Source: Moritella sp.
Lineage (GTDB): Bacteria; Pseudomonadota; Gammaproteobacteria; Enterobacterales; Moritellaceae
NCBI RefSeq assembly: GCF_013215705.1
Contig: NZ_JABSQR010000007.1
Coordinates: 186,001-250,000 of the forward strand
Reading direction: 5' to 3'
Length of the DNA: 64,000 nucleotides
Shown piece after piece: positions 1,727-31,685 of the stretch. The notes beneath the pieces were generated by a model. It did no database searches and was not told where the DNA came from. It was given only the letters and a program-made list of their open reading frames with translations. A program made the translations under genes and the position numbers. Positions within the stretch are counted from its first letter, which is position 1. Every line of letters starts with the position of its first letter.

Positions 1727-1811
1727 AATAATTCCGATGACTATATTCAAATTTAACACCATACGTTAAGAGCAACTAAATACAATAATTTATCATAAAA
1801 TCAACCAAAAA

Positions 1812-1852
1812 CCAGTAAATATACCAGTAAATATACCAGTAAATATACCAGT
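1812..1852. repeat. Three tandem 12-bp repeats plus partial fourth
   Basis: The unit CCAGTAAATATA occurs at 1812-1823, 1824-1835 and 1836-1847, followed by CCAGT. The array ends 25 bases before the GST start codon, so it covers the likely promoter or 5' leader. Read on the other strand it contains CTGGTATATTTAC, the core of the dyad at 1113-1132. It may bind a regulator or vary in copy number by slippage. Confidence 0.8.
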
Positions 1853-5788: not shown

Positions 5789-6085
5789 ATGTTACCAGCA
5801 GCACGCGCGACCGACATGCATATATGTCCAATGCAAACACCCGCATTAGTACCGATCCCACATGTTGGCGGGCCGCTGCTACCACTGCCGACAACCGTAT
5901 TAATCGGTAATTTACCCGCTGCGACCGTAGGACAAATATGTATGTGTGTTGGCCCACCCGACAGTGTGGTGAAAGGCAGTGCAACCGTCTTAATCAACAG
6001 TAAGCCAGCAGCAAGAATGGGCGATACCACAGCCCACGGTGGTACCATTATAATGGGAATGCCAACGGTTTTAATTGGTGGTTAA
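5789..6085 (+). CDS. PAAR-domain spike tip protein
   Basis: A 98-residue stand-alone PAAR protein that caps the VgrG trimer with a metal-bound cone. Visible features are the N-terminal AARATDMHICPM, repeated GxPTVLIGxxPAA units and the C-terminal ARMGDTTAHGGTI... . His and Cys residues suitable for zinc binding occur in HICP and TAHGG. No effector domain is fused. The last 15 bases overlap the 3' end of the convergent kinase gene. Confidence 0.93.
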   Translation: MLPAARATDMHICPMQTPALVPIPHVGGPLLPLPTTVLIGNLPAATVGQICMCVGPPDSVVKGSATVLINSKPAARMGDTTAHGGTIIMGMPTVLIGG

Positions 6086-10225: not shown

Positions 10226-11373
10226 TACTTATCATCTACCTTTTTACTACGGCGTATAACTGCATTTAATCCAAAGCGAGCATTAATTTCATTTTTCAAC
10301 AGTTTCGCCTTTGCTAAATCGCGATTGTTCGGAATAAATAATTCCACGCCGGTAGGTACTTCATTTAATACCACTTTATAGCCAATAGCTTGTATGTCTT
10401 TTTCTAACCGCGCAGCGCTGGCTTTCGTCGCAAAACTCGCTACCACGATATTCCATGAGATCGTATCGATAAGCGCAGTCGGTTCCACGCTCACAGCTTC
10501 TTGCACTTCAATGTCTAAGTCTTCAGGCGTACTGGTGTAAATCAAATCATTGTTATTCGTGCTATTGATAAAACCAGCCATATCCAACGAGCTAAATGCC
10601 ATTAAGGTTGATTGACTACGCTGGTCATACCAAAATTCTGAAAAACAATACGTACTGATAATTAATAATACGCCAATCCAAGATAATTTAACCGCACTGA
10701 TAAATCGCCAAGGCGAGGTCGTTTCCGGCATCGAAATCGGCGCTGGCGGCTCCAGTATTGATTCGCTACGGTAGTGTAGGATCGTACTGTAAAGCTCAGA
10801 CTGTAACTCATTCATTTTCTGGCGATTATCATGACGATACTTGCCTAAAAAACCGAGCATAATCAACACATATTGAAGCTCTAAGAAGTCCACCAGCTTT
10901 GCAGGTTGACGGCCTGCTTGTTCAAGCAGTTGGAAGAAAACCTCACCACCATTACGTTGGCTAAAGACCTTACTGAGTAATGAATGATTTTCCCAACGAG
11001 CCACTTCGCCCCACGAGGTATACAAGATCAATTCATCAAACGCCGCGCATAATATAAAGCAAACCTTTTCAATCACACTTGGGTGATAATCTAAAAACAA
11101 CCCTTTGCGTTTAAAGTCTGCGATACCATCCAGCAATTGTTGACGAAAGGCATTAATATCTAAAGGTGAGGTTTGTCTTTCAACACTTGCCAAAATACCC
11201 AGTAATTCACTGCATTCTTTTAAGATTGGATTGTTATAATTCGCTAATTGAGCGATTAACTTTTCCGAGCCTCTTAAATCAAGCTGTACCTCACTACTCG
11301 TTTTCACTGCTTTACGCGGACTGTTACTGCGACGAATTGAAATCGTCGGTTGTTCATTAAATAATAATGTCAT
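10225..11373 (-). CDS. tssL: TssL/DotU with C-terminal SPOR-like domain
   Basis: 382 residues. The N-terminal cytoplasmic DotU domain (about 40-215) has NPILKECSELLG and AAFDELILYTSWGE. It is followed by one transmembrane helix (about 228-245) and a periplasmic tail. The last ~75 residues (WNIVVASFATKASAARLEKD...GVELFIPNNRDLAKAKLLKNEI) have the pattern of a SPOR peptidoglycan-binding domain. Extended TssL proteins more often carry an OmpA-like domain, so this would be an alternative wall anchor. It forms the inner-membrane complex with TssM. It lies nine bases after tssK. Confidence 0.92.
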   Translation of the reverse strand: MTLLFNEQPTISIRRSNSPRKAVKTSSEVQLDLRGSEKLIAQLANYNNPILKECSELLGILASVERQTSPLDINAFRQQLLDGIADFKRKGLFLDYHPSVIEKVCFILCAAFDELILYTSWGEVARWENHSLLSKVFSQRNGGEVFFQLLEQAGRQPAKLVDFLELQYVLIMLGFLGKYRHDNRQKMNELQSELYSTILHYRSESILEPPAPISMPETTSPWRFISAVKLSWIGVLLIISTYCFSEFWYDQRSQSTLMAFSSLDMAGFINSTNNNDLIYTSTPEDLDIEVQEAVSVEPTALIDTISWNIVVASFATKASAARLEKDIQAIGYKVVLNEVPTGVELFIPNNRDLAKAKLLKNEINARFGLNAVIRRSKKVDDK

Positions 11374-11381
11374 AGCGTCCC

Positions 11382-12704
11382 CTAACGAATTACGTACAAT
11401 TCAATATCAACATCGCCAATGCGATTATCGACATGTAATGCTATCGGTTCGTCTTTCTTCACGAGCTGCTGCCACAAATCAGATTTCGTATCCAGCTCGA
11501 AATAGGCCACATCAGTACGTGATTTTAATTCCGATGGCGCAATAGGTAACGCGCGTACAGGCACACCAGATAACGCATTTCGCACAAGTTCAGCAACCAT
11601 GCTGTTACCTGCTAGCTTAACCGCGAGTGGGAATTGTTTACTTAACTGCACAGCACCTAACGGTGACGATACCACCAAAATAAATCGACCCGCATTATAA
11701 AGGCTTGAGTCCTGTACTAACGTACGCAATAAACGACGCTTATCAAACAAGCTCTTATCCCAGACTAACGTAGTCACGCTATCGAGTTGAACTTCACGTA
11801 ATAGCACGCGAATATCAGAGAACAAGGTTGAAAAAAGGCTATACAAACGGCCATTATTCCAGCTGTCATATTCTTTCGGCATCTTAGTATCTAAGCCCTG
11901 CATTTCACCTGCCATTGACATACATTCTTGGTAAATTTCTTGCGGTGATGTGGTGCCACTATCAAGCCAATACTTAATATTTGGTAACCAACGACCTAAA
12001 GCCTGTAGCCATAAATAATCACGAATTAACGCTTGATAGCTTTTGTTAACAGAATCTACCTGTAAGCGTTGTGAAATGGTGCTCGCGCGGTATTTCATCT
12101 GTGCATACAGATCATTCACGTTATCTTTTAAGTATTCAGACACCGTGAAATAAAGTGACATTGGGATAAACGCACGGTTTAGCTCAATCCCGCCATCTGA
12201 CTTATGTTCAGTGATATGCGCAATCGGGATCTGGGTATAATCCTGTAACTCTTCGCCTTCAAGCTTGAGTACGATATTTAATTCCGCTAACTCTAATTGC
12301 AACGCATCGGCATTGTCTCGGGTCGTATCAAACACGTCGTAATCAGTGCGGTGGTAACGGCGATGAGGGTCATCTTTACTGCCTACATTCATCACACCAG
12401 ATCGATAAATTGGCATCGCTAAATACACTAATTTATCCATGGCACCAGCAGGAATATCAAGTGCTAATCCATTACGAATATCAAAAGGAGTGCCATCAGG
12501 AAAAATACCTTTTGCACGCTTGATCCCAACTTTGCCAATATTAACTAATGAATAATCAAGTTCTAACTCAGCCAAACCGTGGCGCATTGGATTCATCAGG
12601 CTGCAATATTGTTTGGTAAACTCTTCAAAATAACGCTCTTGTTGTTGAAAATGTTGCGGGCTTAAAAACATCCCCTCAGACCAAACTACTTTTTTCTTAT
12701 CCAT
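11382..12704 (-). CDS. tssK: T6SS baseplate-membrane adaptor TssK
   Basis: 440 residues, the normal TssK length. The N-terminus KVVWSEGMFLSPQHFQQQERYFE is the family hallmark (given here in pieces: WSEGMFL, SPQHFQQQ). The C-terminal part includes GVPVRALPIAPSEL and YFELD. TssK trimers connect the TssEFG baseplate to TssL/TssM. It follows tssJ by two bases and precedes tssL by eight. Confidence 0.95.
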   Translation of the reverse strand: MDKKKVVWSEGMFLSPQHFQQQERYFEEFTKQYCSLMNPMRHGLAELELDYSLVNIGKVGIKRAKGIFPDGTPFDIRNGLALDIPAGAMDKLVYLAMPIYRSGVMNVGSKDDPHRRYHRTDYDVFDTTRDNADALQLELAELNIVLKLEGEELQDYTQIPIAHITEHKSDGGIELNRAFIPMSLYFTVSEYLKDNVNDLYAQMKYRASTISQRLQVDSVNKSYQALIRDYLWLQALGRWLPNIKYWLDSGTTSPQEIYQECMSMAGEMQGLDTKMPKEYDSWNNGRLYSLFSTLFSDIRVLLREVQLDSVTTLVWDKSLFDKRRLLRTLVQDSSLYNAGRFILVVSSPLGAVQLSKQFPLAVKLAGNSMVAELVRNALSGVPVRALPIAPSELKSRTDVAYFELDTKSDLWQQLVKKDEPIALHVDNRIGDVDIELYVIR

Positions 12705-12706
12705 TA

Positions 12707-13180
12707 TTAATCCTCTTCACCTGTCACGGTAATGTTTACGCCGTCAATTCTGATGTTTACAACAATCGGAAATCCAGATTTCACACTCAAAATTGCGGTA
12801 CTTTTGGCTTCTCTGTAATTAGAAAAAGCAGCTACCACACCGACATATTTAATTTCGCTGTTTTGTGGCAACGCGACCTTGTGAGCTTCGCTCGGTAAGA
12901 TACTGTCGAGCTGGCGTTTAGATAATAATCCAGCCTTTAACACACCTTGATCATCACGATACAAATCAATAAAGTTCGCCTGCATAAATGCCTCTCTGTC
13001 AGCCAACTGATAGATTCGAATCTCAAGGGGTGACGCTAAGCCATTTATATTAGGGTTGATGTTGTATTCAGCCTCAATATTAACGACCACTTGCAATGGC
13101 AGTGCGTCTCGCCAAAACATCCAGCTGCTACAGCCACTTAAAAATAAAGTACACATCAAAAAGACAAGCACACGTTGCAT
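12707..13180 (-). CDS. tssJ: T6SS outer-membrane lipoprotein TssJ
   Basis: 157 residues with a lipoprotein signal, MQRVLVFLMCTLFLSGC, in which LSGC is the lipobox. I chose the start at 13180 because it begins one base past the stop of the FHA gene and gives a normal signal peptide; an upstream ATG at 13222 would bury it. The mature part is a beta-sandwich with NINGLASPLEIRIYQL and the typical LLSKRQLDSILPSE segment. It tethers TssM to the outer membrane. Confidence 0.92.
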   Translation of the reverse strand: MQRVLVFLMCTLFLSGCSSWMFWRDALPLQVVVNIEAEYNINPNINGLASPLEIRIYQLADREAFMQANFIDLYRDDQGVLKAGLLSKRQLDSILPSEAHKVALPQNSEIKYVGVVAAFSNYREAKSTAILSVKSGFPIVVNIRIDGVNITVTGEED

Positions 13181-13181
13181 A

Positions 13182-14204
13182 TTACTTGCCTCCCATTGAC
13201 TGCTTAATGCGTAAACTTTCACTGAAATACGCTTTAAATTTCATCTGCCATTCGTTGTTCTCTTTTTGACGAGTAAAGTAGCGTTTGTACACAGTCCAAT
13301 AGTCCGCTTTCTTTTGCCAAAAACGTCGCGGCGCAAAGTCATCAAAGAAACTTTCTAGCTCCGTCGGCGAAATATCAGACAGTAATCGTTCTAACGCCAT
13401 TTCTGCTGATTGCACCATCAGGTCATGCTGCTTAAGTTGTAACAACATCAGTTGCTGTGATTCCAACGCAGGGTAATTAGATCGTGAACTCGTATCAGCA
13501 AACGGTTGGCCTTCATCAATCACTACAGACGCGGTATTAAGCATCTCATCACCAAAGGGATCATCAGAAAAACTATCATCATCCAACCAGGTATTTTGAA
13601 GCATGTCTTGTCCCCGTTTTTTTACAGGTTCATTCGCAACAAATGGGTCTGCAAATATGCCGTCCAACTCTTCTTTGGGATCAACAAACACCCATTCTGG
13701 TACTGCAAGGTCATCTGACGACTCTGGTGCTGAGTCTGCGTTGTCATTACCCGAATGAGCGTTAACGCGGGCAGTCGATAAGGCATCGCCAAACGGATCG
13801 TCATCCCAGCCATTCAGTAATGACGACTTATCAGTACCTTGTGTTCCAGTTTTCCCCGACACCTTTACAACCGCTATGTCGGGAGTGAAACAAGACACCA
13901 TTAGGCGATATTTACCCACATTAACCACGTCGCCATCGTTCAAGGTCGATTGATTATTTGAACCTAACGGTTTGGTCGCGCCATTTAAAAACACACCATT
14001 AGTGCTCACATCCATAATTTGATAACCACGGCTGCCACGATTAATTAACGCATGCGTACCCGAAATTTCTCTAGAGGCATCCGATAATTGCATCGTCATA
14101 CCATAAGCACGACCAATGCTTCCTCCTTCATCAGGGAAAGTGACTGTCCATTCTGGAATGGGTTCTCCATCAGGAGAGCTGATGATTCGTAATGATAACG
14201 GCAT
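13182..14204 (-). CDS. tagH: FHA-domain T6SS regulator (TagH/Fha type)
   Basis: 340 residues from the ATG at 14204, which starts one base after the upstream stop; the longer frame to 14309 lies inside that gene. The FHA domain (about 1-100) has GGSIGRAYG, SREISGTHALI and DVSTNGVFLNG, the phosphothreonine-binding loops. A low-complexity acidic middle with repeated DDPFGD motifs is followed by a helical C-terminal domain (about 240-340). The protein probably receives the signal from the Ser/Thr kinase encoded at the end of the operon and licenses assembly. Confidence 0.9.
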   Translation of the reverse strand: MPLSLRIISSPDGEPIPEWTVTFPDEGGSIGRAYGMTMQLSDASREISGTHALINRGSRGYQIMDVSTNGVFLNGATKPLGSNNQSTLNDGDVVNVGKYRLMVSCFTPDIAVVKVSGKTGTQGTDKSSLLNGWDDDPFGDALSTARVNAHSGNDNADSAPESSDDLAVPEWVFVDPKEELDGIFADPFVANEPVKKRGQDMLQNTWLDDDSFSDDPFGDEMLNTASVVIDEGQPFADTSSRSNYPALESQQLMLLQLKQHDLMVQSAEMALERLLSDISPTELESFFDDFAPRRFWQKKADYWTVYKRYFTRQKENNEWQMKFKAYFSESLRIKQSMGGK

Positions 14205-14205
14205 A

Positions 14206-14946
14206 TTATTGACCCTCGCACGCCACAATGGCTTGATTGAATTCATTGATAAATAACGGATATTTCTCCGTAAACTTCTTCGAGAAATACACACCGAGTG
14301 GTTTCTCATTTACCATTGTTTTAGTTATTGCTCGATGGCTAATACCCAATTGATTAATCGCGTTGTCCATCACTACATCATTCGCCAACACTGCACCTAC
14401 TTCGCCTGACAGTAGTAATTCAATAAGCGCAGTAGCACGACGCGGTTTTTTCTCGACTCGGTAACCTTGTTTTTGTAACCATAACCACTTGTTCGAACCA
14501 AATAACGCGGTTACTGGTACTTCTTTTTTAAACTGGTGACTCTTCGTATCAATCGCGTCAGACAAACTAAACCAACTCCATGTTTGGTTCATTAAAGGCG
14601 CAGAATACTCGGCATATTTATCGCGGGTATCATTCTTAGACGCGAGGAAAAGGCCATGTAGTTCCCCTACTTCCGTTAGAATTTGAGAACGGTCCCAGTC
14701 TGTCATCGTTATTTGATAAGGCTGTTTCATTACCTTTAAAATACATTTCAACTTCACGATCCCAAGCCCTTTCATTTCACCGTTTTCTTGGTATTGATAA
14801 GGACTCCACATTTGTGTCGCTAACAGTAATCGTTCCGGACGGATTTCACTTCTTGCCATAAATGCCCCTCCGAGAAACAAGCTTAACGCCAGTGTTAAAG
14901 GCATTATTCTGTTTACGTTATGTATTACGTTATGTATTACGTTCAT
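14206..14946 (-). CDS. Orphan periplasmic solute-binding protein (family 3 fold)
   Basis: 246 residues with a signal peptide (hydrophobic stretch about 15-32) and a bacterial extracellular solute-binding family 3 fold. The pattern includes WSPYQYQENGEMKGLGIVKL, a TDWDRSQ segment and SGEVGAVLANDVVMD. There is no adjacent permease or ATPase, so it probably senses a ligand rather than importing it. The start at 14946 has a strong GGAGG site and overlaps the upstream gene by four bases. Codons 2-12 consist of a 12-bp tandem repeat (14913-14943) that encodes NVIHNVIHN. It is the last gene of the four-gene accessory module in the T6SS operon. Confidence 0.75.
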   Translation of the reverse strand: MNVIHNVIHNVNRIMPLTLALSLFLGGAFMARSEIRPERLLLATQMWSPYQYQENGEMKGLGIVKLKCILKVMKQPYQITMTDWDRSQILTEVGELHGLFLASKNDTRDKYAEYSAPLMNQTWSWFSLSDAIDTKSHQFKKEVPVTALFGSNKWLWLQKQGYRVEKKPRRATALIELLLSGEVGAVLANDVVMDNAINQLGISHRAITKTMVNEKPLGVYFSKKFTEKYPLFINEFNQAIVACEGQ

Positions 14947-18298: not shown

Positions 18299-18306
18299 TG
18301 TCGCTC

Positions 18307-20509: not shown

Positions 20510-23119
20510 TTAATTAATGGCAATTGCCACGGCACCATCTACAACACTGATATTGACGCTGGTGATGCTTTGCCCTTCACTTATTCTGGTGATACATTGC
20601 GTCGCCAGTTCTGGTACTAATCGACGATTAATGATTTGTTCAATGGCTCTAGCACCTGTTTCTGGCGAATTATTTTGGCTCACTAAATAATCCACCAAGT
20701 CACTGTCATAACTGAACTCAGCGTTATAATAACCACTCACTCTTTTCTCAATTCGACGTAAAGAAAGACGCGCAATTTCAGCCATTTCAGTATCATTTAG
20801 AGGGAAATATGGCACCACGGTCGTACGACCAATAAAGGCAGGTTTAAAATACTGCTGTAAAGCAGGCGTGATCGTCTGAGTCAAAGCAGATACATCTGGA
20901 CGCTCGATCTGGCAGGCATCAACAACCGCACTATCTGCCGCATTAGATGTCATGATGATAAGCGTATTTCTAAAGTCAATTTCACGACCTTCACTGTCTG
21001 AAATAGTGCCTTTATCAAAGATTTGATAAAATATATCGTGAACACCGGGATGCGCTTTTTCCATTTCATCAAGTAACAATACCGAGTAAGGATTTTTACG
21101 TACCGCTTCGGTTAACACACCACCTTTACCGTAACCAACATAACCCGCAGGCGAGCCAAGTAGCATTGATACTTTGTGCTCTTCTTTAAATTCAGTCATA
21201 TTGATGGTCGTGATATTTTTCTCACCACCGTAAAGCAGATCCGTTAATGCCAACGCGGTTTCTGTTTTACCCACACCACTCGGTCCACACATTAAGAACA
21301 CACCGACGGGTTTACGTGGATCAGTTAATCCAGCGCGAGACATACGAATCGCTTTGGCTATTTCATGAATAGGAGCATGTTGCCCAATAACACGTTTTCC
21401 GAGTTCAGCTTCAAGGTTAAGTAAACGTTTCACATCATCTTTAACCATGTTACCAACAGGGATCCCAGTCCATAACGCAATCACTTCAGCAATAGTCTGC
21501 TTATCAACCTGTGCCATCACCAAGGGTGACTCACCTTGAATACTGCGCAGTTCCGTCATTTTTTCACTTAACAGTGCCTGCATTGGCGTATCTGCAACCT
21601 GTTCACCCGCAAGAAAACGTTCTCCAATAACATCCTGTAATCTTAAAATTTCGGTCACACATTCCTTTTCTATATTCCAACGCGAGTTTAACGCCTCGTA
21701 TTCAGACTCCAGTTGATTACATTTCTGTTCAATCGCCACCAATTTTTCAGTGCCGTTCGCATACATCGCATCTTCATATGTAAACGAGGTACGCTCATTG
21801 TGCGCATAACGGATCTGTTCAGCTAACCCATCTAATTGTTGCGGTAATGCGCTCTGGCTCAAGCCAATACGTGAACACGCCGTATCTAATAAACTAATCG
21901 CTTTATCAGGTAATTTTCGCTCTGGTAAAAAGCGTATTGACAACTGAACCGCAGCTTCAATTGCTTCTTCCAATACCGCCACGTTATGGTGTTTTTGCAA
22001 ACTACCCGCAACACCTCGTAGCATTTGAATAGCATCTTCTTCACTCGGTTCACCCACAGCAACAAGCTGAAAACGACGCGTCAGTGCGGCATCGGTTTCA
22101 AAATACTGCTTATACTCAGCCCACGTTGTTGCAGCAATCGTTCTAAATTCCCCACGTGCTAACGCTGGTTTTAATAAGTTGGCCGCATCATTTTGTCCTG
22201 CAGCACCACCTGCGCCAATTAACGTGTGAGCTTCATCAATGAACACAATAATTGGGCGTTCAGATTGCTTCACTTCCGTTAACACATCTTTCAAACGGTT
22301 TTCAAATTCACCTTTGATACTTGCACCCGCTTGTAATAAAGACAGATCCAGTGTACGTAACTCCACATTCATCATTGACGGAGGCACGTTACCATCAACA
22401 ATTTGCTGTGCTAATCCTTCAACAATCGCGGTTTTACCCACACCCGGATCACCTACAAGGATCGGGCTGTTTTGACGACGACGGCACAGAATATCAATCG
22501 ATTTACGGATTTCAGGATTACGCCCTGAGATTGGATCTAATTCACCTTTACGTGCTGCTTCAGTTAAATTGTGCGTATATTTATCAAGTGCTACAGTACC
22601 CACAGACTCATTCGGAGCCATGTCATTATGTTGTACTTCACCTGCGGTTGTTTGAGCGCCTTGCTTCGTGGCAACACTTTTTAATGATTCAAGCGATACC
22701 GTGTTCAACCATGTGGTCAATTCACCGTTGTATCCACCTTGTTCAATACGCTGCTTGAGTACGAGCAGTACGTGATAACCATTAATTGACGCGTTACTGT
22801 GGTTAAGCGACGCTAATAACCAGCAATCTTTAAGCAGTTCAATCAACGAAGGTGAAAGCGATGGCGAACTGTCGTTGCCACGAGCTAAACAATTTAAGTT
22901 CCGATTAAGCAAATCAATAATTTGTTCACGCTCAATACTGCTTTGCGATAACACGCCTTGCCAACCTGATTTTGACTCATTTAATAATTGATAAAACCAG
23001 TGTTCAACATCGACACTAAAATGTGTTCGAGCCATACAATCTGCAGCAGCCTGCTCGAGAGCGCTCTTTAATGTTGGCGTTAATCGCGTCACTAGTTTTT
23101 GTAATTCAACGTTAATCAT
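20510..23119 (-). CDS. clpV: T6SS sheath-disassembly ATPase ClpV (TssH)
   Basis: 869 residues with the ClpV layout: an N-terminal helical domain, a first AAA+ domain with Walker A GDPGVGKTAIVEG and Walker B IIVFIDEAH, a coiled-coil middle domain and a second AAA+ domain with Walker A GPSGVGKTETALAL and LLLDEMEKAHPG. The C-terminal ClpB-like small domain contains NSPETGARAIEQII. It recycles contracted TssB/TssC sheath by pulling on the TssC N-terminus. Both ATP sites look intact. It lies eight bases after tssG. Confidence 0.96.
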   Translation of the reverse strand: MINVELQKLVTRLTPTLKSALEQAAADCMARTHFSVDVEHWFYQLLNESKSGWQGVLSQSSIEREQIIDLLNRNLNCLARGNDSSPSLSPSLIELLKDCWLLASLNHSNASINGYHVLLVLKQRIEQGGYNGELTTWLNTVSLESLKSVATKQGAQTTAGEVQHNDMAPNESVGTVALDKYTHNLTEAARKGELDPISGRNPEIRKSIDILCRRRQNSPILVGDPGVGKTAIVEGLAQQIVDGNVPPSMMNVELRTLDLSLLQAGASIKGEFENRLKDVLTEVKQSERPIIVFIDEAHTLIGAGGAAGQNDAANLLKPALARGEFRTIAATTWAEYKQYFETDAALTRRFQLVAVGEPSEEDAIQMLRGVAGSLQKHHNVAVLEEAIEAAVQLSIRFLPERKLPDKAISLLDTACSRIGLSQSALPQQLDGLAEQIRYAHNERTSFTYEDAMYANGTEKLVAIEQKCNQLESEYEALNSRWNIEKECVTEILRLQDVIGERFLAGEQVADTPMQALLSEKMTELRSIQGESPLVMAQVDKQTIAEVIALWTGIPVGNMVKDDVKRLLNLEAELGKRVIGQHAPIHEIAKAIRMSRAGLTDPRKPVGVFLMCGPSGVGKTETALALTDLLYGGEKNITTINMTEFKEEHKVSMLLGSPAGYVGYGKGGVLTEAVRKNPYSVLLLDEMEKAHPGVHDIFYQIFDKGTISDSEGREIDFRNTLIIMTSNAADSAVVDACQIERPDVSALTQTITPALQQYFKPAFIGRTTVVPYFPLNDTEMAEIARLSLRRIEKRVSGYYNAEFSYDSDLVDYLVSQNNSPETGARAIEQIINRRLVPELATQCITRISEGQSITSVNISVVDGAVAIAIN

Positions 23120-23127
23120 GCAGTGTC

Positions 23128-24108
23128 CTACTTTAGTTTTAGTGGCATAACCACATACTGTTGTGTTATTTCAGTCGATGCTAACCTCGCGGATTGGCTT
23201 AATCGCACACCATAACTCGCATCTCGAGTTAACTGACAAGCCGGTAATTGTTGTCCAGCCACTTTCATTGCTAAGTTGATTTTAATATTCGAGCCCATGT
23301 AATGGCGGATAAATGCGTCGATGGCATCGCTCAAGACTTTGTTTTGATTGAGCTGTTCAAAGTTTTGATGATTGGGTTTCACTTTGACGTCAAGTTGTTG
23401 AAATGCGGTAACCGCACTTTTCCCAAGCAATGCGTCAAAGCCCAACTGGTTGTTTTGCCCTGTTGCGCCTAAGTGTGTCAAGCAGCACCCTAATAGCGGC
23501 TGATATTCAATATCGCCATGATCGACTTCAAATTCATACCCAAAATAATCCGCTAATAAGTGCTTGAGTGTTGTTAGACATGTCACCTTCGCTCCCATTA
23601 ACCCGGTGTATTGAATAAGGTGCCCTTGTGGTAACGCAGTATTAATACTCGTGTCACCCGCAAGGCTAGACAACATCGTAGTGAGTGATTTGTGATGACG
23701 GTTCCAGCTAAACCGCTCTTCTTCCGCTTGGATAACGATGTTGTTCTTGGTTTCGGTCTGGCAATAAAGGCGAAAATAGCGATTATTAAAACCATCCAAA
23801 AAATCGACTAAGGCGCTATTACCTTGCTCAAATGACTCACGTAACGCTTCGCTGTAGTTATAACGAGGCATGACCCCTTGACTGCCAGACAGCGCGGGTA
23901 AGTCACACGTAAAATGCCATGAATTGTCAGTGTATTGCTGAACTTCAACAATGTCTGATTGATGGTATGACGGCAGTAAATGCGTAATAAAATTAAGCTC
24001 AGGACGCGCGCCTAACTTAGCCGCATGATGCTTCACTAACTGCACCGCCTGCGGTAATTCAAACTGATAAGGCGCACAACGTAGCGAGCCTAATATAGAT
24101 TTTTGCAT
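23128..24108 (-). CDS. tssG: T6SS baseplate protein TssG
   Basis: 326 residues, normal for TssG. The N-terminus (SLRCAPYQFELPQAVQLV) is the family start, followed by RPELNFITHLLPSYHQ and the conserved YFRLYCQTETK region. TssG pairs with TssF around the VgrG hub in the baseplate wedge. Its start overlaps the tssF end by 19 bases, indicating translational coupling. Confidence 0.93.
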   Translation of the reverse strand: MQKSILGSLRCAPYQFELPQAVQLVKHHAAKLGARPELNFITHLLPSYHQSDIVEVQQYTDNSWHFTCDLPALSGSQGVMPRYNYSEALRESFEQGNSALVDFLDGFNNRYFRLYCQTETKNNIVIQAEEERFSWNRHHKSLTTMLSSLAGDTSINTALPQGHLIQYTGLMGAKVTCLTTLKHLLADYFGYEFEVDHGDIEYQPLLGCCLTHLGATGQNNQLGFDALLGKSAVTAFQQLDVKVKPNHQNFEQLNQNKVLSDAIDAFIRHYMGSNIKINLAMKVAGQQLPACQLTRDASYGVRLSQSARLASTEITQQYVVMPLKLK

Positions 24109-25874
24109 CCGAGCCTCCGTGGGAAAACACGGTATTCGCCTTCTCGACCATCAAGTAATATCACGACTTGTGTAAAGCTATTAAAACCAGAGAAATACGC
24201 AAAAAATCGATCCAATAATTGGGCGAGTAGCTCAACCCCACCAGCCAGACCCGTCGGGTTTATTGTCACGCTCAGTCGTGTGCCATTAGCAAAACAACTT
24301 TTCCCCGAAATACGCACAGGTGCAACAACATGCGCTTGCGACAAACCTTGAATGGATTCGATATAAGCACTGTTTTTGGCACTATTGTTGTGGTTATAAA
24401 GTTGCAGCATGACTTTTAATGCCGACACCGGATCATCGTTACCAAACAGGGCTTGGTAGTTAAAATGTAAGTGCGCCAATAACGGCCAAGCGCCTTGCTC
24501 ACCAGTGTTGATGTTAGTTTGTTTTGTCGGGCGACGTAATAACGTCAAATCCGCAGGTAAAGAAATAGAGTCGTGACAATGTAACTGACAAGACGTAGAC
24601 AATTGACTCGCCGCATTGCCATTTGTGCAGGTCGTCGAGATTAACCAAGTGTGTGCTGATTTATCAACATGACTGTGGTCTAAATTCGCAACACGCAATG
24701 CACTCGACACCGACTGGTCGCTCATATTTTCAGACTGCGATAACTGCCAACGTAATCCAATTTCAGCACCGTTAAATTTTTCACCGTATAGCGGCGGTAC
24801 ATTTCGGGGTTTCTGTTCAGTTACGTCCGTTACATCATCAACCGAAAATAACTGTAACTGCGCTTGTCCACCAACATCCAGCATGATTGGATACTGCGAC
24901 TGGCTAAAATCGACACGTAATGGCTCTGCGGTGATGGACTGTAAGTTAATGATAGGCGAACAGAATAAATGAAAATTATTAACACCTAAGCTACGTGCTA
25001 ACTCCACTGGCATGTCGTCTAAAAAAATTCGGATTTTAAGTGTGTTGGTATTGGCATGCTGCAATGCCGACGATAACGCTAACTTAATCGCATGGAATCG
25101 CTCTGCAAACATAAAAAATTCGGTTAATAACTTAAAACCACCGAAACTACGTACACTATAAGGTAAGACGAATTCTTGCTCTTCAAAACCAACCGGCAAG
25201 AGGGCGTCAGCCCCTAATAAAACAACGCTGTCGTCATATTGAATTGAGATCTGTTGGATCCCCGAAAACAAATGATCGTAAAGGCGCAATATTGTAGATG
25301 TTTCACCCCGCAAAAATAACGATAATTCAGTCAGTTCCAAATCAGAAAACAGGATCGTTGGATCTGTCGTTGTTAATGTCAGTTCAAGCATCGCTTTCGC
25401 ATGCTCAGCCCCTTTTGGCTTTTTAATATCAAAGGGAGCAATAGACGCTGAACAATCCGTTAAGGTGATCGGGTATAAATCAACATCTTGCGTTGTGCGG
25501 AACACCAAGGTGTCGGTATCGACATCATCAAGTCCTAAGTGCGTTCCGCGAGGCAGAGTGTACTTTGCAGTGACTTCTTCGTGAGGCAGCATTTTAACCA
25601 TGCTATAAGCAGGCACAGGGCGTAGATAATGTGGAAATAAAAGTTGTAACAAGCTATCCGTTAACTGCGGGTAATCCTCATCTAAACGCTGTTGTAAACG
25701 AGCATTCAACAAGGCCACGCTATCAATAAGACGGGTCACTTGCGGGTCATCAATACTATCGCGACTGATCCCAAGTGACTTAGCGGCACCGGGATGGCGT
25801 TGAGCAAAGTGACCCGCATCTTGGCGAATAAATGCTAACTCTTGTTCAAAATAACTTAATAATGATTCAGACAA
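24090..25874 (-). CDS. tssF: T6SS baseplate protein TssF
   Basis: 594 residues. The N-terminus LLSYFEQELAFIRQDAGHFA and HPGAAKSLGI are hallmark TssF sequence. RLIDSVALLNARLQQRLDEDYPQLTDSLLQLLFPHYLRP (in pieces, RLIDSVALLNARL and LLFPHYLRP) and the C-terminal RREYRVFPRR-type end confirm it. It forms the baseplate wedge with TssG, TssE and TssK. The start overlaps tssE by eight bases. Confidence 0.94.
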   Translation of the reverse strand: MSESLLSYFEQELAFIRQDAGHFAQRHPGAAKSLGISRDSIDDPQVTRLIDSVALLNARLQQRLDEDYPQLTDSLLQLLFPHYLRPVPAYSMVKMLPHEEVTAKYTLPRGTHLGLDDVDTDTLVFRTTQDVDLYPITLTDCSASIAPFDIKKPKGAEHAKAMLELTLTTTDPTILFSDLELTELSLFLRGETSTILRLYDHLFSGIQQISIQYDDSVVLLGADALLPVGFEEQEFVLPYSVRSFGGFKLLTEFFMFAERFHAIKLALSSALQHANTNTLKIRIFLDDMPVELARSLGVNNFHLFCSPIINLQSITAEPLRVDFSQSQYPIMLDVGGQAQLQLFSVDDVTDVTEQKPRNVPPLYGEKFNGAEIGLRWQLSQSENMSDQSVSSALRVANLDHSHVDKSAHTWLISTTCTNGNAASQLSTSCQLHCHDSISLPADLTLLRRPTKQTNINTGEQGAWPLLAHLHFNYQALFGNDDPVSALKVMLQLYNHNNSAKNSAYIESIQGLSQAHVVAPVRISGKSCFANGTRLSVTINPTGLAGGVELLAQLLDRFFAYFSGFNSFTQVVILLDGREGEYRVFPRRLGCKNLY

Positions 25875-26289
25875 AGTTAGTTTTCCTTACATCGACACTG
25901 CTTGTGGTGAAATCTAAGCTTGAATCAAACACAACAAGCTCTTCACCAAACTCGCTGACGATCACGCCTTCGATTCTAAATTTCAGTTTATTCGTGACGA
26001 CTGACTCTTCTTCCAGCTCAATATTAAGATCCTTAATGCGAGGTTCGAATTTCGTAATTAACTGCTTAATACTTTGTAAGATATGTTCACTATTGGCTCT
26101 ATTCTGGCCTCTCACCGCATGGCTCATACCCAGTAAAGCGATAGATTCATCAGTATATTTAGCAACATCATCATCGCCCCAAATGGGCGATTTAGCAGAA
26201 AGTAATGATGCAATATTTTCAATAATAGCATCGCGAAGATCATCAATATTCGCCGTCCAATCACCTTTCATTTTTGCAAACAGACTCAT
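25867..26289 (-). CDS. tssE: T6SS baseplate protein TssE (gp25-like)
   Basis: 140 residues, similar to phage T4 gp25. Conserved features include DDLRDAIIENIASLLSAKSP and the C-terminal FRIEGVIVSEFGEELVVFDSSLDF, which is the gp25 beta fold. It seeds sheath polymerisation on the baseplate. It starts three bases after the second tssC-like gene and overlaps tssF. Confidence 0.92.
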   Translation of the reverse strand: MSLFAKMKGDWTANIDDLRDAIIENIASLLSAKSPIWGDDDVAKYTDESIALLGMSHAVRGQNRANSEHILQSIKQLITKFEPRIKDLNIELEEESVVTNKLKFRIEGVIVSEFGEELVVFDSSLDFTTSSVDVRKTNFV

Positions 26290-26291
26290 GA

Positions 26292-27662
26292 TTATTGCTT
26301 CCCTAATTTTGTTGCGGGCACGTCGGTAAGCAGCACTATGTGGGTGTCTAACATTTCATATTGATATTGCGGCTGTAGGTTTATTTGGCAACGGTATTTT
26401 GTTGGATCAAGCAGGTCTTGCGTAAAATTAACATCAGCGCGTTTAAGAGGATAACGGGCCATGACAGACTCATCACCAAAATCAACGCCACTGATATATT
26501 GGTTTAACCATTTTTCTAACGAACGCTGACATGTAGACGGGCTATCAAAGCTACCGATTTGGTCGCGGATCTGCGCTTTAATGTAATGACCAAAACGACA
26601 GGCCATGAGATTGGTCTGTAACATACCACTCATTTTTTCAGTTTCAGTCGTTGCCTTCCACACAGACTGATTACTGAAAATGCCTTTTTGACCGCTGAGA
26701 TAGACACTTGATAAAGGAACAAACCCTTGTTCAGACCAAAATTCATCATCTTCACTAAACAGATCAATCCGTGATAACAGTGGCTCTTGCTGACCATTAC
26801 CGACTTGCACTATCGCGCCATAACGCCCGCGTTCATCGTAGGCACGTAAAAAACCAAACCAACTGATACGATCAAATTCACGGATCACGTTTGCAGCCAA
26901 TAAATACGCTGCGTTTCCCCACAGTACATGTTCCGTCAGCGCTCGTTCGTTAAACACAAACCCGGCTTGGCAATGCTGATAAGGGCTTCTTAAATGGTAT
27001 TCTGGTAACACCAAATTTAAGAAACGACTCGCACTATGAGAACGTAATAACTGCCAACTTTGTAAATCTGAACTGCTTAAAATACGCTGTATACGTTTAT
27101 GGTCAGGCATTAATCGAGCGGGTTCGTCACCAAAGAAATACGGATCCACGCCAAGGCTTACAGGGCACAACGCGCGTTCACCTAATTCACCTAATAACTG
27201 CAGTGTGTACAGATCATCAAAATCGGCATCATCATCTAAGTCAGACTGAATAAGATGGTCAACAACCAACAGTCCAAAGGGGTGGCCGCCTGCAGTATCG
27301 AGTTCTTTTGCGTATATTTTTTGATATAACGCACTGCGGGTGACATTGAAAGATTGATTAAGATCGGCAGACACCATGTCCCAGCTAAGGTCTAATAACT
27401 TAACGTGCACACGGCGTTGCGAAACTGGCAGTAAAACTAAGCTATGTAGTCCTAACCAGCGCGCTTCCAATTCTTTGAAGTCAGTGGCTTGCATGACAGC
27501 AGAAAGTTGCTCGCTCATGACATCATCAAGTTGCGTGATCAGTTTACTTAACTGTGATTTGAATTCTGAACGATTATCGTTCTGAGCATGGTTTAACAGC
27601 ATCCGCCACAGCCCTGCATCCGTCAGGACGTTGGCGGATGATGTTAGATTTGATGTACTCAT
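26292..27662 (-). CDS. Second TssC-family sheath protein
   Basis: 456 residues with the TssC family pattern: LEARWLGLHSLV, ARLMPDHKRIQRILSSSDL, FVFNERALTEHVLWGNAAYL and CRFGHYIKAQIRDQIGSF. It is shorter and diverged from the adjacent main TssC, and lacks its N-terminal acidic leader used for ClpV recognition. Two tssC-like genes in a row are known in some T6SS loci; the second may form a capping or alternative sheath layer, though its role is not settled. The ribosome site is GAGGTTGTT before the ATG. Confidence 0.88.
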   Translation of the reverse strand: MSTSNLTSSANVLTDAGLWRMLLNHAQNDNRSEFKSQLSKLITQLDDVMSEQLSAVMQATDFKELEARWLGLHSLVLLPVSQRRVHVKLLDLSWDMVSADLNQSFNVTRSALYQKIYAKELDTAGGHPFGLLVVDHLIQSDLDDDADFDDLYTLQLLGELGERALCPVSLGVDPYFFGDEPARLMPDHKRIQRILSSSDLQSWQLLRSHSASRFLNLVLPEYHLRSPYQHCQAGFVFNERALTEHVLWGNAAYLLAANVIREFDRISWFGFLRAYDERGRYGAIVQVGNGQQEPLLSRIDLFSEDDEFWSEQGFVPLSSVYLSGQKGIFSNQSVWKATTETEKMSGMLQTNLMACRFGHYIKAQIRDQIGSFDSPSTCQRSLEKWLNQYISGVDFGDESVMARYPLKRADVNFTQDLLDPTKYRCQINLQPQYQYEMLDTHIVLLTDVPATKLGKQ

Positions 27663-27703: not shown

Positions 27704-29185
27704 TTAACCCGGAATATTAGCAACCATACGTAATGACGATGTTAACTCTTCCATTTGTAACCAAGGGCGTAAATAAGCCACGGCAGAATAACAACCAGGG
27801 CGGCCCACTTGTTCTTCAACTGTTACTTTTGCTTCAACCAATGGATGTGTTGATTTTGCTTCATTGCCAATCGCACTTGGATTAACATACTGGTGGAGCC
27901 AGTTACTTAGTTCTTTTTCAATAGTACCCGGATCTAAGTTAGAACCAATACGATCACGGCCCATGACTTTTAGGTACTGTGCGATTCGGCTACTTGCCAT
28001 GGTGTAAGGCAAGCGTGCTGAAATGGCTGCGTTTGCAGTCGCATCAGGATCGGTATACGTTTTTGGCTTATGCGCCGTTTGAGCACCCATGAATACGGCG
28101 TAGCTCGTATTTTTATAATGCACTAACGGTAAGAAACCTAAGTCACTCAGTTCTTTTTCACGTTCATCTGTTAGGTTTACTTCAGACGGACATTGTTGAA
28201 CTAAATCACCCGCTGGTGTGTAGTAAGTAAAGTTCGGTAGGTTTTCAACTTTACCGCCATTATCATTACCACGAATAGCAGTACACCAACCGAATTGTGT
28301 ATATGCTTGCGTTAACAATAAACCGTATTCAAACGCAGCATTACTCCACACAAGATCATCTTGCGTCTCTGGGTAAGCATTGCCGTTAGCGTCATGTTTC
28401 AATTCTTCAAAATCAAATGACTTAACAGGTACTGTTTGTTTACCATAAGGTAAACGTGCAATTGTTTTTGGTAGTGTTAGTGCAACATAACGCGAATCAT
28501 CACTTTCACGGAATGCATTCCAGCTAGCGTAAGCAGGTGAATCAAAACCAGCGGCGACTGGTTTACCTTCGTTAAAGTTAACGAATGAACTAAAATCAAA
28601 CATGCTTGCATTTGCAGCCGCAATAAATGGTGAATGAGATGCCGCAGCAACTTCACCCATATAACGCATTAGCGCTACATCTTCATCGCCATAACCAAAT
28701 TCGTAATCACCTAACAATGCACCGTAAGGTTGGCCACCAGCTGTACCAAATTCTTCTTGATAAATCATCGTAAATAAACGGCTACGATCAATCGCTGGCG
28801 CATCTTCAAATTGCTCTAATAATTCGTCTTTCGTGTAGTCCGCAAGCTTAATTTTTAAGTTTGGGCCTAATTCACTATTTTTAACTAATTTTTGCAGACC
28901 TAACCAAGTACCTTCCAGTTTTTGGAACGCCTTGTGTTGCATCACTGTTGAAAGCTGTTCAGAGATTTTCACGTCTAATGCAGAAATCGCTTTTTCGATT
29001 GTTAGTGTTAGGTTTTTATCCCAAGTAACAGTACCGTCTAGCGCTTGTAAAGTGAGTACAGATAGCAATTCTTTGGTCGTGTCTGCTGGTGTCTGTGTGG
29101 TTGCTGAAATAGCGCGGTCAAGAAAGTTTAATTCACCTTCTGCGGCACCGGCTTGTTCTGTTGCAGCTTGTTGTTCCGTGCTCAT
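27704..29185 (-). CDS. tssC: T6SS contractile sheath large subunit TssC (VipB)
   Basis: 493 residues, typical for TssC. Visible motifs include LEGTWLGLQKLV, LFTMIYQEEFGTAGGQPYGALLGDYEF, WNAFRESDDSRYVALTLPK and MASSRIAQYLKVMGRDRIG. It polymerises with TssB into the contractile sheath. Its ATG overlaps the tssB stop by one base (TAATG), so its translation is normally coupled to tssB. Because tssB is currently out of frame, ribosomes terminate early upstream and TssC yield may drop. Confidence 0.96.
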   Translation of the reverse strand: MSTEQQAATEQAGAAEGELNFLDRAISATTQTPADTTKELLSVLTLQALDGTVTWDKNLTLTIEKAISALDVKISEQLSTVMQHKAFQKLEGTWLGLQKLVKNSELGPNLKIKLADYTKDELLEQFEDAPAIDRSRLFTMIYQEEFGTAGGQPYGALLGDYEFGYGDEDVALMRYMGEVAAASHSPFIAAANASMFDFSSFVNFNEGKPVAAGFDSPAYASWNAFRESDDSRYVALTLPKTIARLPYGKQTVPVKSFDFEELKHDANGNAYPETQDDLVWSNAAFEYGLLLTQAYTQFGWCTAIRGNDNGGKVENLPNFTYYTPAGDLVQQCPSEVNLTDEREKELSDLGFLPLVHYKNTSYAVFMGAQTAHKPKTYTDPDATANAAISARLPYTMASSRIAQYLKVMGRDRIGSNLDPGTIEKELSNWLHQYVNPSAIGNEAKSTHPLVEAKVTVEEQVGRPGCYSAVAYLRPWLQMEELTSSLRMVANIPG

Positions 29186-29708
29186 TATTCAGTCTCCCCA
29201 GTTTTTACACCTAGCTCTTCAGCTAAATGTTGAATTGAATCGGTACTTTGTAGTACTTCTTTCAATAAGCGTTCTAGATCACGAGAGCGATCCGCTTTGC
29301 TTAGTAATTCTTTTAACTGGTTACGTGTTTCAACCAATTTTTTTAGGGGATCAATTTGTTGAACCAAGCGTTCAGGATGAAAATCATTCATTGAACTTAG
29401 CTTCAGGTTAACTTCAAATTGGCTATCATCATTTGCTAATTTGTTGTCAACTTTATATGACAATGACGGGCTAATTTGTCCCATCACAGCATCAAAATTA
29501 TCTTTATCAACACCAGTGAACTCACGTTCTTCTAGGTCAATTTTATCACTTTCAGCTTTATGACCAGAGAAGTCACCAATAACACCAACGACAAAGGGCA
29601 AAGGGCAAAGGGCAATTCTTTGGTTTCTGTTGCGCCATTAGTTTCAACATCATAGGTGATACTGACACGGTTTTTACTTATACGCTTATGTTGTGAGTTG
29701 AGAGCCAT
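29185..29708 (-). pseudogene. tssB: T6SS sheath small subunit TssB (VipA), frameshifted by a heptamer repeat
   Basis: A start at 29708 with GGGAAGT upstream encodes the normal TssB N-terminus (MALNSQHKRISKNRVSITYD, then VETNGATETKELPF). The remaining protein (FVVGVIGDFSGHKAESDKID... to the end) continues in a different frame from about 29601. Between them lie three copies of CAAAGGG where one copy would join ELPF to VVGVIGDF perfectly. Three copies add 14 bases, so translation from 29708 ends at a TAG about 80 bases later. With one or four copies the gene would be whole (about 169 residues with one). Sequencing error is possible, but tandem slippage is the simplest cause. Confidence 0.88.
29592..29615. 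repeat. Heptanucleotide tandem repeat (CAAAGGG)3 in tssB
   Basis: Perfect units occur at 29592-29598, 29599-29605 and 29606-29612, followed by a partial CAA. Seven is not a multiple of three, so each gain or loss shifts the tssB frame. Copy numbers 1, 4 and 7 are in frame and the present 3 is not. Confidence 0.95.
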
Positions 29709-29774: not shown

Positions 29775-30293
29775 TTATTTAGTTCCAGAAATTAACTTAC
29801 CTTGTGGAACGTTGTAAGAAACAAGACCGCCGTCTTCTAGTTTACCGCCATCAAGTTCATGACGATGTTTCTTATCAACTTGGATGTAAGAAAGTGAGAT
29901 GCTTTCGAACGGTTGAGAACCGTCGCTGCCACTTAGGTTGTATGAAACAACACGTGCTTTTTTTAGACCTACTTGGTAATAAATTTCAGCACCAGAACCA
30001 TCACGTGCAGCTTTAGTAAATACGATATCAACATTTTTACCTTCAACACCTGGACTGAATAGGAACGATAAAAGATCTTCAGAAGCACCACAAAGTTCTT
30101 TTGTAATACTTACTTCGCTCATAGCAACCATGCCGGAGTCAGCATTATTACCACTACCAATTTCCATTGCTACTTGACGAACAGCGCCCCAGCTATATGA
30201 ATTCAAAGCAAACCAACCATCTTGTGGTAAACCTTCAATTGTTGCGCCACCTTTAACTTTAACGCCATCAATTCTCATATATATACTAGCCAT
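29775..30293 (-). CDS. hcp: T6SS tube protein Hcp (TssD)
   Basis: 172 residues from the ATG at 30293, which has GAGG eight bases upstream; an ATG four codons earlier would overlap that site. The Hcp beta-barrel pattern is clear: MASIYMRIDGVKV, LNSYSWGAV and the C-terminal ESISLSYIQVDKKH. Hexameric Hcp rings stack to form the ejected tube. There is no fused effector domain. It is followed by an attenuator hairpin and then tssB. Confidence 0.96.
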   Translation of the reverse strand: MASIYMRIDGVKVKGGATIEGLPQDGWFALNSYSWGAVRQVAMEIGSGNNADSGMVAMSEVSITKELCGASEDLLSFLFSPGVEGKNVDIVFTKAARDGSGAEIYYQVGLKKARVVSYNLSGSDGSQPFESISLSYIQVDKKHRHELDGGKLEDGGLVSYNVPQGKLISGTK

Positions 30294-30332
30294 GATATTC
30301 CTCACTTATTTCTACTTGGGATTGAAAACCAA

Positions 30333-31685
30333 TTACCAGAGAGAATTACTACTCGAGGTAGATACTGGTTCTTCTTGAACTTCTTCTACAGAGACAGCCG
30401 TTACATTGTTCAAAACAGAGTGACTCGATGTTGTACTGACTGCTCTCGTGTTGTGTTGCACAGATGTAGATTTATCCACACCTGACAGCGGTAACATTTT
30501 TTTGTGCATTGGCTGAATAACATTCGTATCCCCGTTCTCATCAAGAGCGGATAGATGAAACACTTGTTTAATCGTATCCTCTTGATTTAATAACAGCTCC
30601 GACATCAACTCAGGAAGTGATAAATAGCCCCAACGAATTGCTTTTTCTAACAAATAAGAGACCGGGCTATGTGGTTCTACTTTCCTAAACGATTCAGCTA
30701 ACGTTCGTAGTTGATGAAACGCATCATCGCGATTGAATTCTTGATTATTAACAGGTAAACCATCTAACAAAGCGTAATCAGTAACACTATCTTCTTTAAC
30801 TTGCATATTCTTTTCGCCGCCATCAACATGATTGATTTCATCTGTTTCAGGTTGTATATCAGCCTTAATCACGCGTTTTTCTTCACTCTTTAAACCTGAG
30901 ATGTATTCCATCGCTTTCAATATTTTAGTGATCACGCTGACAATAAATTGAAAGCCAGGTTGAGGTAATAAATACTGTTTACATACGCTAGTGACATGTG
31001 TTTCAACGGCACGCATAGCCTCTCGTATCGACACTAAATTTTGCATTAAGCTAGTTACTTTAACCCTTTCACCCAATGCCACATTTTGGTACTGTTGACG
31101 TAACTCAGGTAAACCGCCTTTGCGCTCTGCACTTAAATAACGCGAATAATTTAAGTCCCCAATTAGCGGTAACATTAAGAAAGGTGAATACACTAAGCTA
31201 CTGTCTTCACTTTCACCGACTAGTTGTACAAAGCCCTTCACTTTAAATGCGTTAATTTCTTTTAATTTGTCACTTTCTGACTTTATTTTATTGTCAGGGA
31301 GTACGGGATGAACCTCGTCCCAATGCCCCTCAACAAGTGCTTGCAACCATTGACTTGCTTCACGCAGCCCATTTAATGCAGGGTCAATGACTATCTGAGC
31401 CGCTAGCAGCCAACCCGCTAGCTCAATATCTTTTGATGTCGTTTTAAATATTTCAATCAAACTACTTGATAAAGAACGCCAGTGTTCAACGTTGGCATCT
31501 TGTAAACTATCCATTTCTGCAGGATCTGGTGTCTGCATTAATTGACGCTGAGATGTTTGTGCAACATTAAATTCATTTCTAAGCGGTCTAAACTTTTGTT
31601 TATCTGATTTTAAATAAACGCCACAAAAATGTTCATCATCAATTGGTAATAAAAGTAATTCATGTGATGTCTGATTGAATAACAT
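30333..31685 (-). CDS. tssA: T6SS assembly protein TssA
   Basis: 450 residues. The ImpA N-terminal domain spans about 10-180 (LLLPIDDEHFCGVYL, then VEHWRSLSSSLIEIFKTTSKDIELAGWLL and HWDEVHPVLPD). A variable middle is followed by the C-terminal signature HSPVSYLLEKAIRWGYLSLPELMSELL, and then a Ser/Thr-rich tail of about 75 residues. TssA coordinates baseplate docking and sheath extension. It is the first gene of the long leftward operon, downstream of a TTACA-type box at 31754-31777. Confidence 0.9.
   Translation of the reverse strand: MLFNQTSHELLLLPIDDEHFCGVYLKSDKQKFRPLRNEFNVAQTSQRQLMQTPDPAEMDSLQDANVEHWRSLSSSLIEIFKTTSKDIELAGWLLAAQIVIDPALNGLREASQWLQALVEGHWDEVHPVLPDNKIKSESDKLKEINAFKVKGFVQLVGESEDSSLVYSPFLMLPLIGDLNYSRYLSAERKGGLPELRQQYQNVALGERVKVTSLMQNLVSIREAMRAVETHVTSVCKQYLLPQPGFQFIVSVITKILKAMEYISGLKSEEKRVIKADIQPETDEINHVDGGEKNMQVKEDSVTDYALLDGLPVNNQEFNRDDAFHQLRTLAESFRKVEPHSPVSYLLEKAIRWGYLSLPELMSELLLNQEDTIKQVFHLSALDENGDTNVIQPMHKKMLPLSGVDKSTSVQHNTRAVSTTSSHSVLNNVTAVSVEEVQEEPVSTSSSNSLW

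What the first reader, a model, noticed from the sequence alone, without database searches (positions are those of the whole stretch)
29592..29615. Heptanucleotide repeat switches tssB out of frame
Three CAAAGGG units replace the single unit that would join the TssB N-terminus (ELPF) with VVGVIGDF. The count of three is out of frame; one or four would be in frame. tssB is essential for the sheath and its stop is coupled to tssC by TAATG, so the whole T6SS would be off in this genome. Seven-base repeats change readily by slipped-strand mispairing, so this may be phase variation of a T6SS, or the first step of decay. I know of no described T6SS switched by a coding repeat in tssB.
Basis: seen in the sequence. 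Interest (0 to 1): 0.88.

Follow-up and report, generated by a model that had tools for sequence, protein, structure and literature searches.

The report
Repeat expansion breaks a T6SS gene
In this Moritella bacterium a seven-letter DNA motif was copied into a short tandem array inside the gene for a sheath protein of its type VI "spear gun"; relatives lack the array, so it looks like a recent copying error that breaks the gene rather than an established genetic switch.

Summary
Observation confirmed: window 29592-29615 is a perfect CAAAGGG array (3.4 units) inside tssB, putting the two halves of TssB in different frames; 0 of 200 simulated windows held such a period-7 array. The genome is placed in Moritella by its relatives. 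Of 10 other Moritella genomes, 5 carry this locus, each with a single-unit-length site and an open tssB; 31 of 31 loci from other genome records (two of them the same contigs) are open across it. Neither tssB piece has a private substitution, and 17 of 18 other cluster genes compared match nearly end to end in four relatives. A second T6SS with an open tssB lies on another contig.

Best reading: a recent slippage mutation that stops this cluster's sheath protein being made; this cluster is probably silent while the second T6SS may work. Phase variation is neither shown nor excluded: no strain of the same species and no reads could be examined. Assembly error cannot be excluded. A similar frame-breaking octanucleotide array sits in yqiJ, compared only with PE36.

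The parts
29592..29615 (-). CAAAGGG x3.4 perfect tandem array inside tssB (unit written on + strand); found in no other genome examined
29616..29708 (-). tssB, N-terminal piece (31 codons before the array); no amino-acid difference from G003, G004, G007, G008
29532..29708 (-). reading frame from the tssB ATG as it stands: 58 codons then stop
29185..29601 (-). tssB, C-terminal piece (VipA family), open but out of frame with the start; its upstream end lies in the array; aligns with VipA from about residue 30 on
27704..29185 (-). tssC (VipB), full length against relatives; start overlaps tssB stop (TAATG)
26292..27662 (-). second tssC-like (VipB) gene, full length against relatives
25867..26289 (-). 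tssE (gp25-like), full length
24090..25874 (-). tssF, full length
23128..24108 (-). tssG, full length
20510..23119 (-). tssH/clpV-like ATPase (named by domains and place), full length
13182..14309 (-). FHA-domain T6SS protein, full or nearly full length
12707..13222 (-). tssJ lipoprotein, full length
11382..12704 (-). tssK, full length
10225..11373 (-). tssL (DotU), full length
6770..10225 (-). tssM (IcmF), full length
29775..30305 (-). hcp (tssD), upstream of tssB, full length
30333..31685 (-). tssA, full length
3212..5218 (+). vgrG (tssI); not compared with relatives
5789..6085 (+). PAAR protein; not compared with relatives

Best explanation
A recent replication-slippage event (or more than one step) in this Moritella lineage expanded a CAAAGGG motif in tssB to three units. 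Shown: the array, its absence from every relative examined, the frame break, and the integrity of the other cluster genes compared. Inferred: the ribosome that starts at the tssB ATG makes a 58-residue product without the VipA body; no full-length TssB is made; TssC is then unstable and the sheath of this T6SS does not form. The second T6SS may still work, so the loss may be tolerated. Slippage could in principle change the array again, but nothing here shows that selection has built or kept it as a switch.
For: Array and frame break. Single-unit-length site in 5 of 5 Moritella loci (10 other genus genomes searched) and an open frame across the site in 31 of 31 loci (two of them the same contigs as G003 and G004). 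The doubled motif occurs in 1 of 11 Moritella genomes, only in this array. Recency: at codons where PE36 and the three outgroups agree, neither tssB piece differs in this genome; over 18 genes (tssB as two pieces) such private changes are 40 synonymous and 23 nonsynonymous here against 47 and 18 in PE36. 17 of 18 other cluster genes compared match nearly end to end in the four closer relatives. One unit is flanked by CAA on both sides in four of the five Moritella relatives (not in G009), a 3-base repeat from which slippage could start. VipA is needed for VipB stability and Hcp secretion in V. cholerae (PMC3656785, passages). A second T6SS has an open tssB.
Against: No raw reads, so the array could be an assembly or library artefact, or only the majority state of a mixed culture. 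No expression or secretion data. Recoding or an internal start could still give some product, though no signal for it was seen in the simple tests made. PE36 as sister is assumed from identity, no tree was built, and tssK is closer to G004 (dS 0.018) than to PE36 (0.152), so parts of the cluster have probably recombined.
Confidence: 0.68

Rival explanations
1. Phase variation: the heptanucleotide array in tssB changes length often enough that the T6SS switches between on and off in the population, as neuO does in E. coli K1.
For: Coding heptanucleotide slippage is an established switch in E. coli neuO, where 3 to 53 units were seen in 64 genomes (PMC13001214, passages). The array is perfect, near the start of the gene, and the rest of the cluster is preserved where compared. 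In 737,495 bases of this genome there are 5 period-7 arrays of 3 or more copies at 4 places, against a mean of 0.05 in 20 simulations.
Against: No relative examined carries an array at this site. 3.4 units is at the low end of the neuO range. tssB encodes a core machine part, not a surface structure. Within-strain or within-species variation could not be looked at.
Confidence: 0.12
2. Assembly or sequencing error: the genome does not really carry the array.
For: Draft assembly of 58 contigs. A second frame-breaking array with two units more than PE36, in yqiJ, could point to a systematic artefact.
Against: A 14-base insertion of two perfect units is not a usual base-calling error (general knowledge). 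Of 255 PE36 ORFs, 184 have a homolog (75% identity or more) in the compared contigs of this genome: 163 are full length in one frame, 12 split or stopped. In reverse, of 265 ORFs, 175 have one: 165 full length, 8 split or stopped. So this assembly is not much more broken. Tandem-type indels of 4-60 bases: 7 longer here, 4 longer in PE36, over 225,283 aligned columns.
Confidence: 0.12
3. Recoding or internal initiation rescues TssB, as transcriptional slippage rescues the interrupted tssM of Citrobacter rodentium.
For: Precedent in a T6SS core gene (PMC4256274, passages). Both frames are open together between 29640 and 29534. The downstream piece keeps the part aligned to VipA from about residue 30 on.
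Against: The longest homopolymer in the overlap is 4 A, against 11 A in C. rodentium. The only ATG, GTG or TTG in the downstream frame before 29487 is a TTG inside the array, and I see no purine-rich ribosome site before it (my reading).
Confidence: 0.05

Closest known systems
Coding heptanucleotide phase variation of neuO in E. coli K1 (PMC13001214, passages seen)
   Same: Seven-base unit in the 5' part of a coding sequence; unit number sets the frame; slippage as the presumed cause.
   Different: neuO has 3-53 units in 64 genomes and mixed unit numbers in one culture; here 3.4 units, no relative with an array, no variation shown; the target is a machine part, not a surface-modifying enzyme.
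Interrupted tssM of Citrobacter rodentium (PMC4256274, passages seen)
   Same: A T6SS core gene broken by frame in a cluster that is otherwise present.
   Different: There an 11-A run gives transcriptional slippage and a working system; here no run longer than 4.
T6SS loss by frameshift in natural isolates: betR/reg2 regulators of Serratia marcescens (PMC7618870, passages seen)
   Same: Loss-of-function frameshifts that lower a conserved T6SS in single lineages.
   Different: There a regulator is hit repeatedly in clinical isolates; here one structural gene in one genome, by a tandem expansion.
Fur/Dam epigenetic switch of the EAEC sci1 T6SS (PMC3145626, passages seen)
   Same: An on/off control of a whole T6SS cluster.
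   Different: Promoter methylation, called non-stochastic by its authors; no sequence change.

Membership tests
Type VI secretion system (this cluster) | the 13 core components (recalled list: TssA to TssM, with Hcp and VgrG) | tested here: met
   Pfam matches for TssA, TssB (in two pieces), TssC, E, F, G, J, K, L, M, Hcp, VgrG; TssH called as a ClpV-like AAA protein by domains and place
Type VI secretion system (this cluster) | TssB in one frame | tested here: not met
   two pieces in two frames; the only such split among 61 PF05591 matches in 119 genomes of the order, 47 of which have a match
Simple-sequence phase-variable (contingency) locus | perfect short tandem array in coding sequence whose unit length shifts the frame | tested here: met
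Simple-sequence phase-variable (contingency) locus | array kept, with differing unit number, among relatives | tested here: not met
   other species have no array at the site
Simple-sequence phase-variable (contingency) locus | differing unit number among strains of the species or within a culture; high reversible rate | not testable with these tools
   one genome per species and no reads held
Recoded gene (programmed slippage) | slippery run in the overlap of the two frames | tested here: not met
   longest run 4 bases; only homopolymer runs were tested, not other ribosomal frameshift signals
Pseudogene under decay | further damage or relaxed selection in the gene or operon | tested here: not met
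   no private substitution in tssB, other genes compared are full length; so a recent break rather than long decay

The most novel reading that the evidence does not exclude
Seven- and eight-base arrays arise and change within genes of this Moritella, and the tssB array is a young, reversible switch of a whole T6SS, with yqiJ as a second locus of the same kind.
Probability: 0.08. Interest if true: 0.72.

Novelty: new member of a known kind. Interest (0 to 1): 0.3.

Why it matters
If the array varies within the species, it would be a direct way to switch an expensive contact weapon off and on in single cells, and a natural test of when T6SS loss pays. As it stands it is a snapshot of a recent tandem-expansion loss of a T6SS core gene in a bacterium that keeps a second T6SS, and a caution against reading any coding tandem array as phase variation without copy-number data.

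Tried and rejected
Considered and rejected or left weak: an array shared with relatives; a generally error-ridden assembly; an excess of tandem indels in this lineage (7 longer here, 4 longer in PE36; out-of-frame 2 and 3). By the open-frame lengths printed there, of the out-of-frame events only the two here (tssB, yqiJ) shorten a long frame. Non-tandem gaps of 4-60 bases go the other way, 33 longer here and 77 longer in PE36; one search does not say in which lineage a change happened. A transcriptional-slippage rescue found no support. A slippage-prone genome peculiar to this strain is weakened: TATTACC-like array matches also turn up elsewhere in G001, G004, G005, G007, G008 and G009. Arrays L075 3473-3490 and L079 4154-4179 first looked coding by the stop-to-stop rule. 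For L079 the listed ORF starts beyond the array, so the array is upstream of the gene. For L075 the array falls in the first codons of the listed ORF, which also has internal methionines, so its coding status is undecided. The PE36 row of that alignment (L127) was misaligned and was not used. The yqiJ array could be compared only with PE36; the matches in four other genomes end before it. Led nowhere: seven Vibrio plasmids with a tssB-like match at 69-75% identity; promoter and terminator scan, 10 promoter-like sites against 11.1 expected and no terminator. First-order Markov simulation understates repeats in real DNA.

Literature: eight of my nine searches concern T6SS; one search is on heptanucleotide repeats. 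Not every hit was listed (25 of 103, 25 of 33, 20 of 23) and most listed papers were not opened. Of eleven papers I saw passages only. None of the listings or passages describes a T6SS switched by a coding repeat in tssB; only open-licence PMC papers are held. Recalled, not looked up: the list of 13 T6SS core components. That the genus Moritella includes a salmon pathogen was known to me and also stands in listings.

Full report
What is there. Window 29592-29615 holds CAAAGGG three times plus CAA, perfect. It lies in tssB, which is read on the minus strand from ATG 29708. The downstream piece 29185-29601 matches PF05591 (T6SS_VipA) with E 6.6e-44. The upstream piece matches positions 2-30 of the same profile in another frame. 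From the ATG the frame runs 58 codons to a stop. The tssB stop overlaps the tssC start as TAATG. None of 200 first-order simulations of the window had a period-7 array this long, though 22 of the 200 had some array of period 4-12 with 3.4 or more copies.

Where it is. The closest named relatives are Moritella sp. JT01 and PE36, 98% identical in protein over the C-terminal piece. G003 is PE36 and G004 is JT01, judged by the lengths of the matched contigs. In the compared contigs this genome is 92.9% identical to PE36 in DNA. The genus is inferred from this; no call names the species.

Relatives. Of 10 other Moritella genomes, 5 carry this locus, with 522 bases where this genome has 536. Four have the motif once; G009 has a variant of it. 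In all five the C-terminal piece lies in a 171-codon open frame that begins upstream of it. Of the 31 loci that one search found in other genome records, 31 are open across the junction; L004 and L023 are the same contigs as G003 and G004. The doubled motif is found in 1 of 11 Moritella genomes, only in this array. In a draw of 119 genomes of the order, 47 have PF05591 matches, 61 in all: 54 cover the profile in a single frame, 4 lie in long ORFs of 565-710 aa, 1 is partial (G068:C58), and 2 are the halves found here.

Age. I took PE36 as sister, by identity and without a tree, and G004, G007 and G008 as outgroups, and counted codons where one genome alone departs. Neither tssB piece has such a change here. 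Over 18 genes, with tssB as two pieces, this genome has 40 synonymous and 23 nonsynonymous private changes and PE36 has 47 and 18. Gene 19535-20491 was left out because it is absent from three of the five relatives' stretches. tssK is closer to G004 than to PE36, so parts of the cluster have probably recombined. Of 18 other cluster genes compared, 17 match end to end or nearly so in G003, G004, G007 and G008; the eighteenth is 19535-20491, end to end in PE36 only. vgrG and the PAAR gene were not compared. The break therefore looks recent, without further decay.

Function. TssB/VipA is required in V. cholerae for stable VipB and for Hcp secretion (PMC3656785, passages). The C-terminal piece aligns with VipA from about residue 30 onwards, so about 30 residues at the N-terminus are cut off. 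A truncated product would need a start codon: the only ATG, GTG or TTG in that frame before 29487 is a TTG inside the array. The overlap of the two frames is about 100 bases and has no run longer than 4 bases, unlike the 11-A run that rescues tssM in Citrobacter rodentium (PMC4256274, passages). I infer that this cluster makes no working sheath.

Second system. The genome has another T6SS on contig C22, with FHA, TssJ, K, L, M, TagF, TssA, B, C, a second TssC-like protein, ImpE, TssE, F, G, a ClpV-like ATPase, Hcp, VgrG and a VasX-like protein. Its TssB is open. Its TssF was cut by the end of a stretch; a stretch across that point shows a frame of 614 codons. Its TssB is 47% identical to the piece here over 131 residues, so whether it could stand in is unknown.

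Is it a switch? Coding heptanucleotide arrays do switch genes: neuO of E. coli K1 has 3 to 53 units in 64 genomes and mixed unit numbers in one culture (PMC13001214, passages). In H. influenzae the count of heptanucleotide arrays of three or more units is 0 in strain Rd, 3 in 86-028NP and 4 in a third strain (PMC2651432, passages), so they are few but not absent. In 737,495 bases of this genome I found 5 period-7 arrays of 3 or more copies at 4 places, with a mean of 0.05 in 20 simulations; in 400,000 bases of G008 there were none. Against a peculiarity of this genome, matches to one of these arrays turn up elsewhere in six other Moritella genomes, G008 among them, and over 225,283 aligned columns tandem indels number 7 longer here and 4 longer in PE36. 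A second array, TTTGCCGC with two units more than PE36, puts the two domains of yqiJ in different frames; no third genome was found to tell which lineage changed. This leaves open that such arrays come and go in Moritella. It does not show a switch.

Verdict. The array is real in the assembly, private among the genomes examined, and recent, and very probably inactivates this T6SS cluster in the sequenced isolate. Phase variation is possible but unsupported. The mechanism, frameshift by tandem expansion, is ordinary; the target is unusual.

Noticed in passing
L073:7144-7174 (G000:C22:67144-67174): TTTGCCGC x3.9 in yqiJ; PE36 has two units fewer and an open gene; here the YqiJ_N and YqiJ_OB parts are in different frames. 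Direction of change not established.
   Followed up: partly
L068:13063-13140 (G000:C4:173063-173140): Intergenic TATTACC/CTATTAC heptanucleotide array of about 11 units; fewer units in PE36 and G010, a related ATTTCCT array in G005 and G006, none seen at this place in the other six; similar arrays lie elsewhere in several Moritella genomes.
   Followed up: partly
L073:6359-6386 and L081:4016-4056: Further period-7 arrays (CATTTAA x4; TTTTTTA x5.9), both without a long open frame.
   Followed up: no
L055/L056 (G000:C22:1-40000): Second, apparently complete T6SS with its own tssB and a VasX-like protein.
   Followed up: partly
window 26292-27662: A second VipB-family gene follows tssC, as also in the second T6SS cluster (L055:16150-17844).
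   Followed up: no
window 19535-20491: Gene without Pfam match between an ATP-grasp gene and clpV; no homolog in the 30-kb stretches of G004, G007 and G008, 99.7% identical in PE36, 38% over part in G009: a variable slot in the cluster.
   Followed up: no
window 14206-19461: ABC substrate-binding-like, MFS-like and ATP-grasp (D-Ala-D-Ala ligase-like) genes and one without Pfam match sit inside the T6SS cluster here and in all five relatives.
   Followed up: no
window 14913-14943: In-frame 12-base repeat at the start of ORF 14206-14946; PE36 has 12 bases fewer.
   Followed up: no
window 1811-1852: ACCAGTAAATAT x3.5 just upstream of a glutathione S-transferase gene at 1878-2534.
   Followed up: no
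window 54096-54116: TTTCTG x3.5; one unit fewer in PE36, where the covering open frame is 330 codons against 264 here.
   Followed up: no
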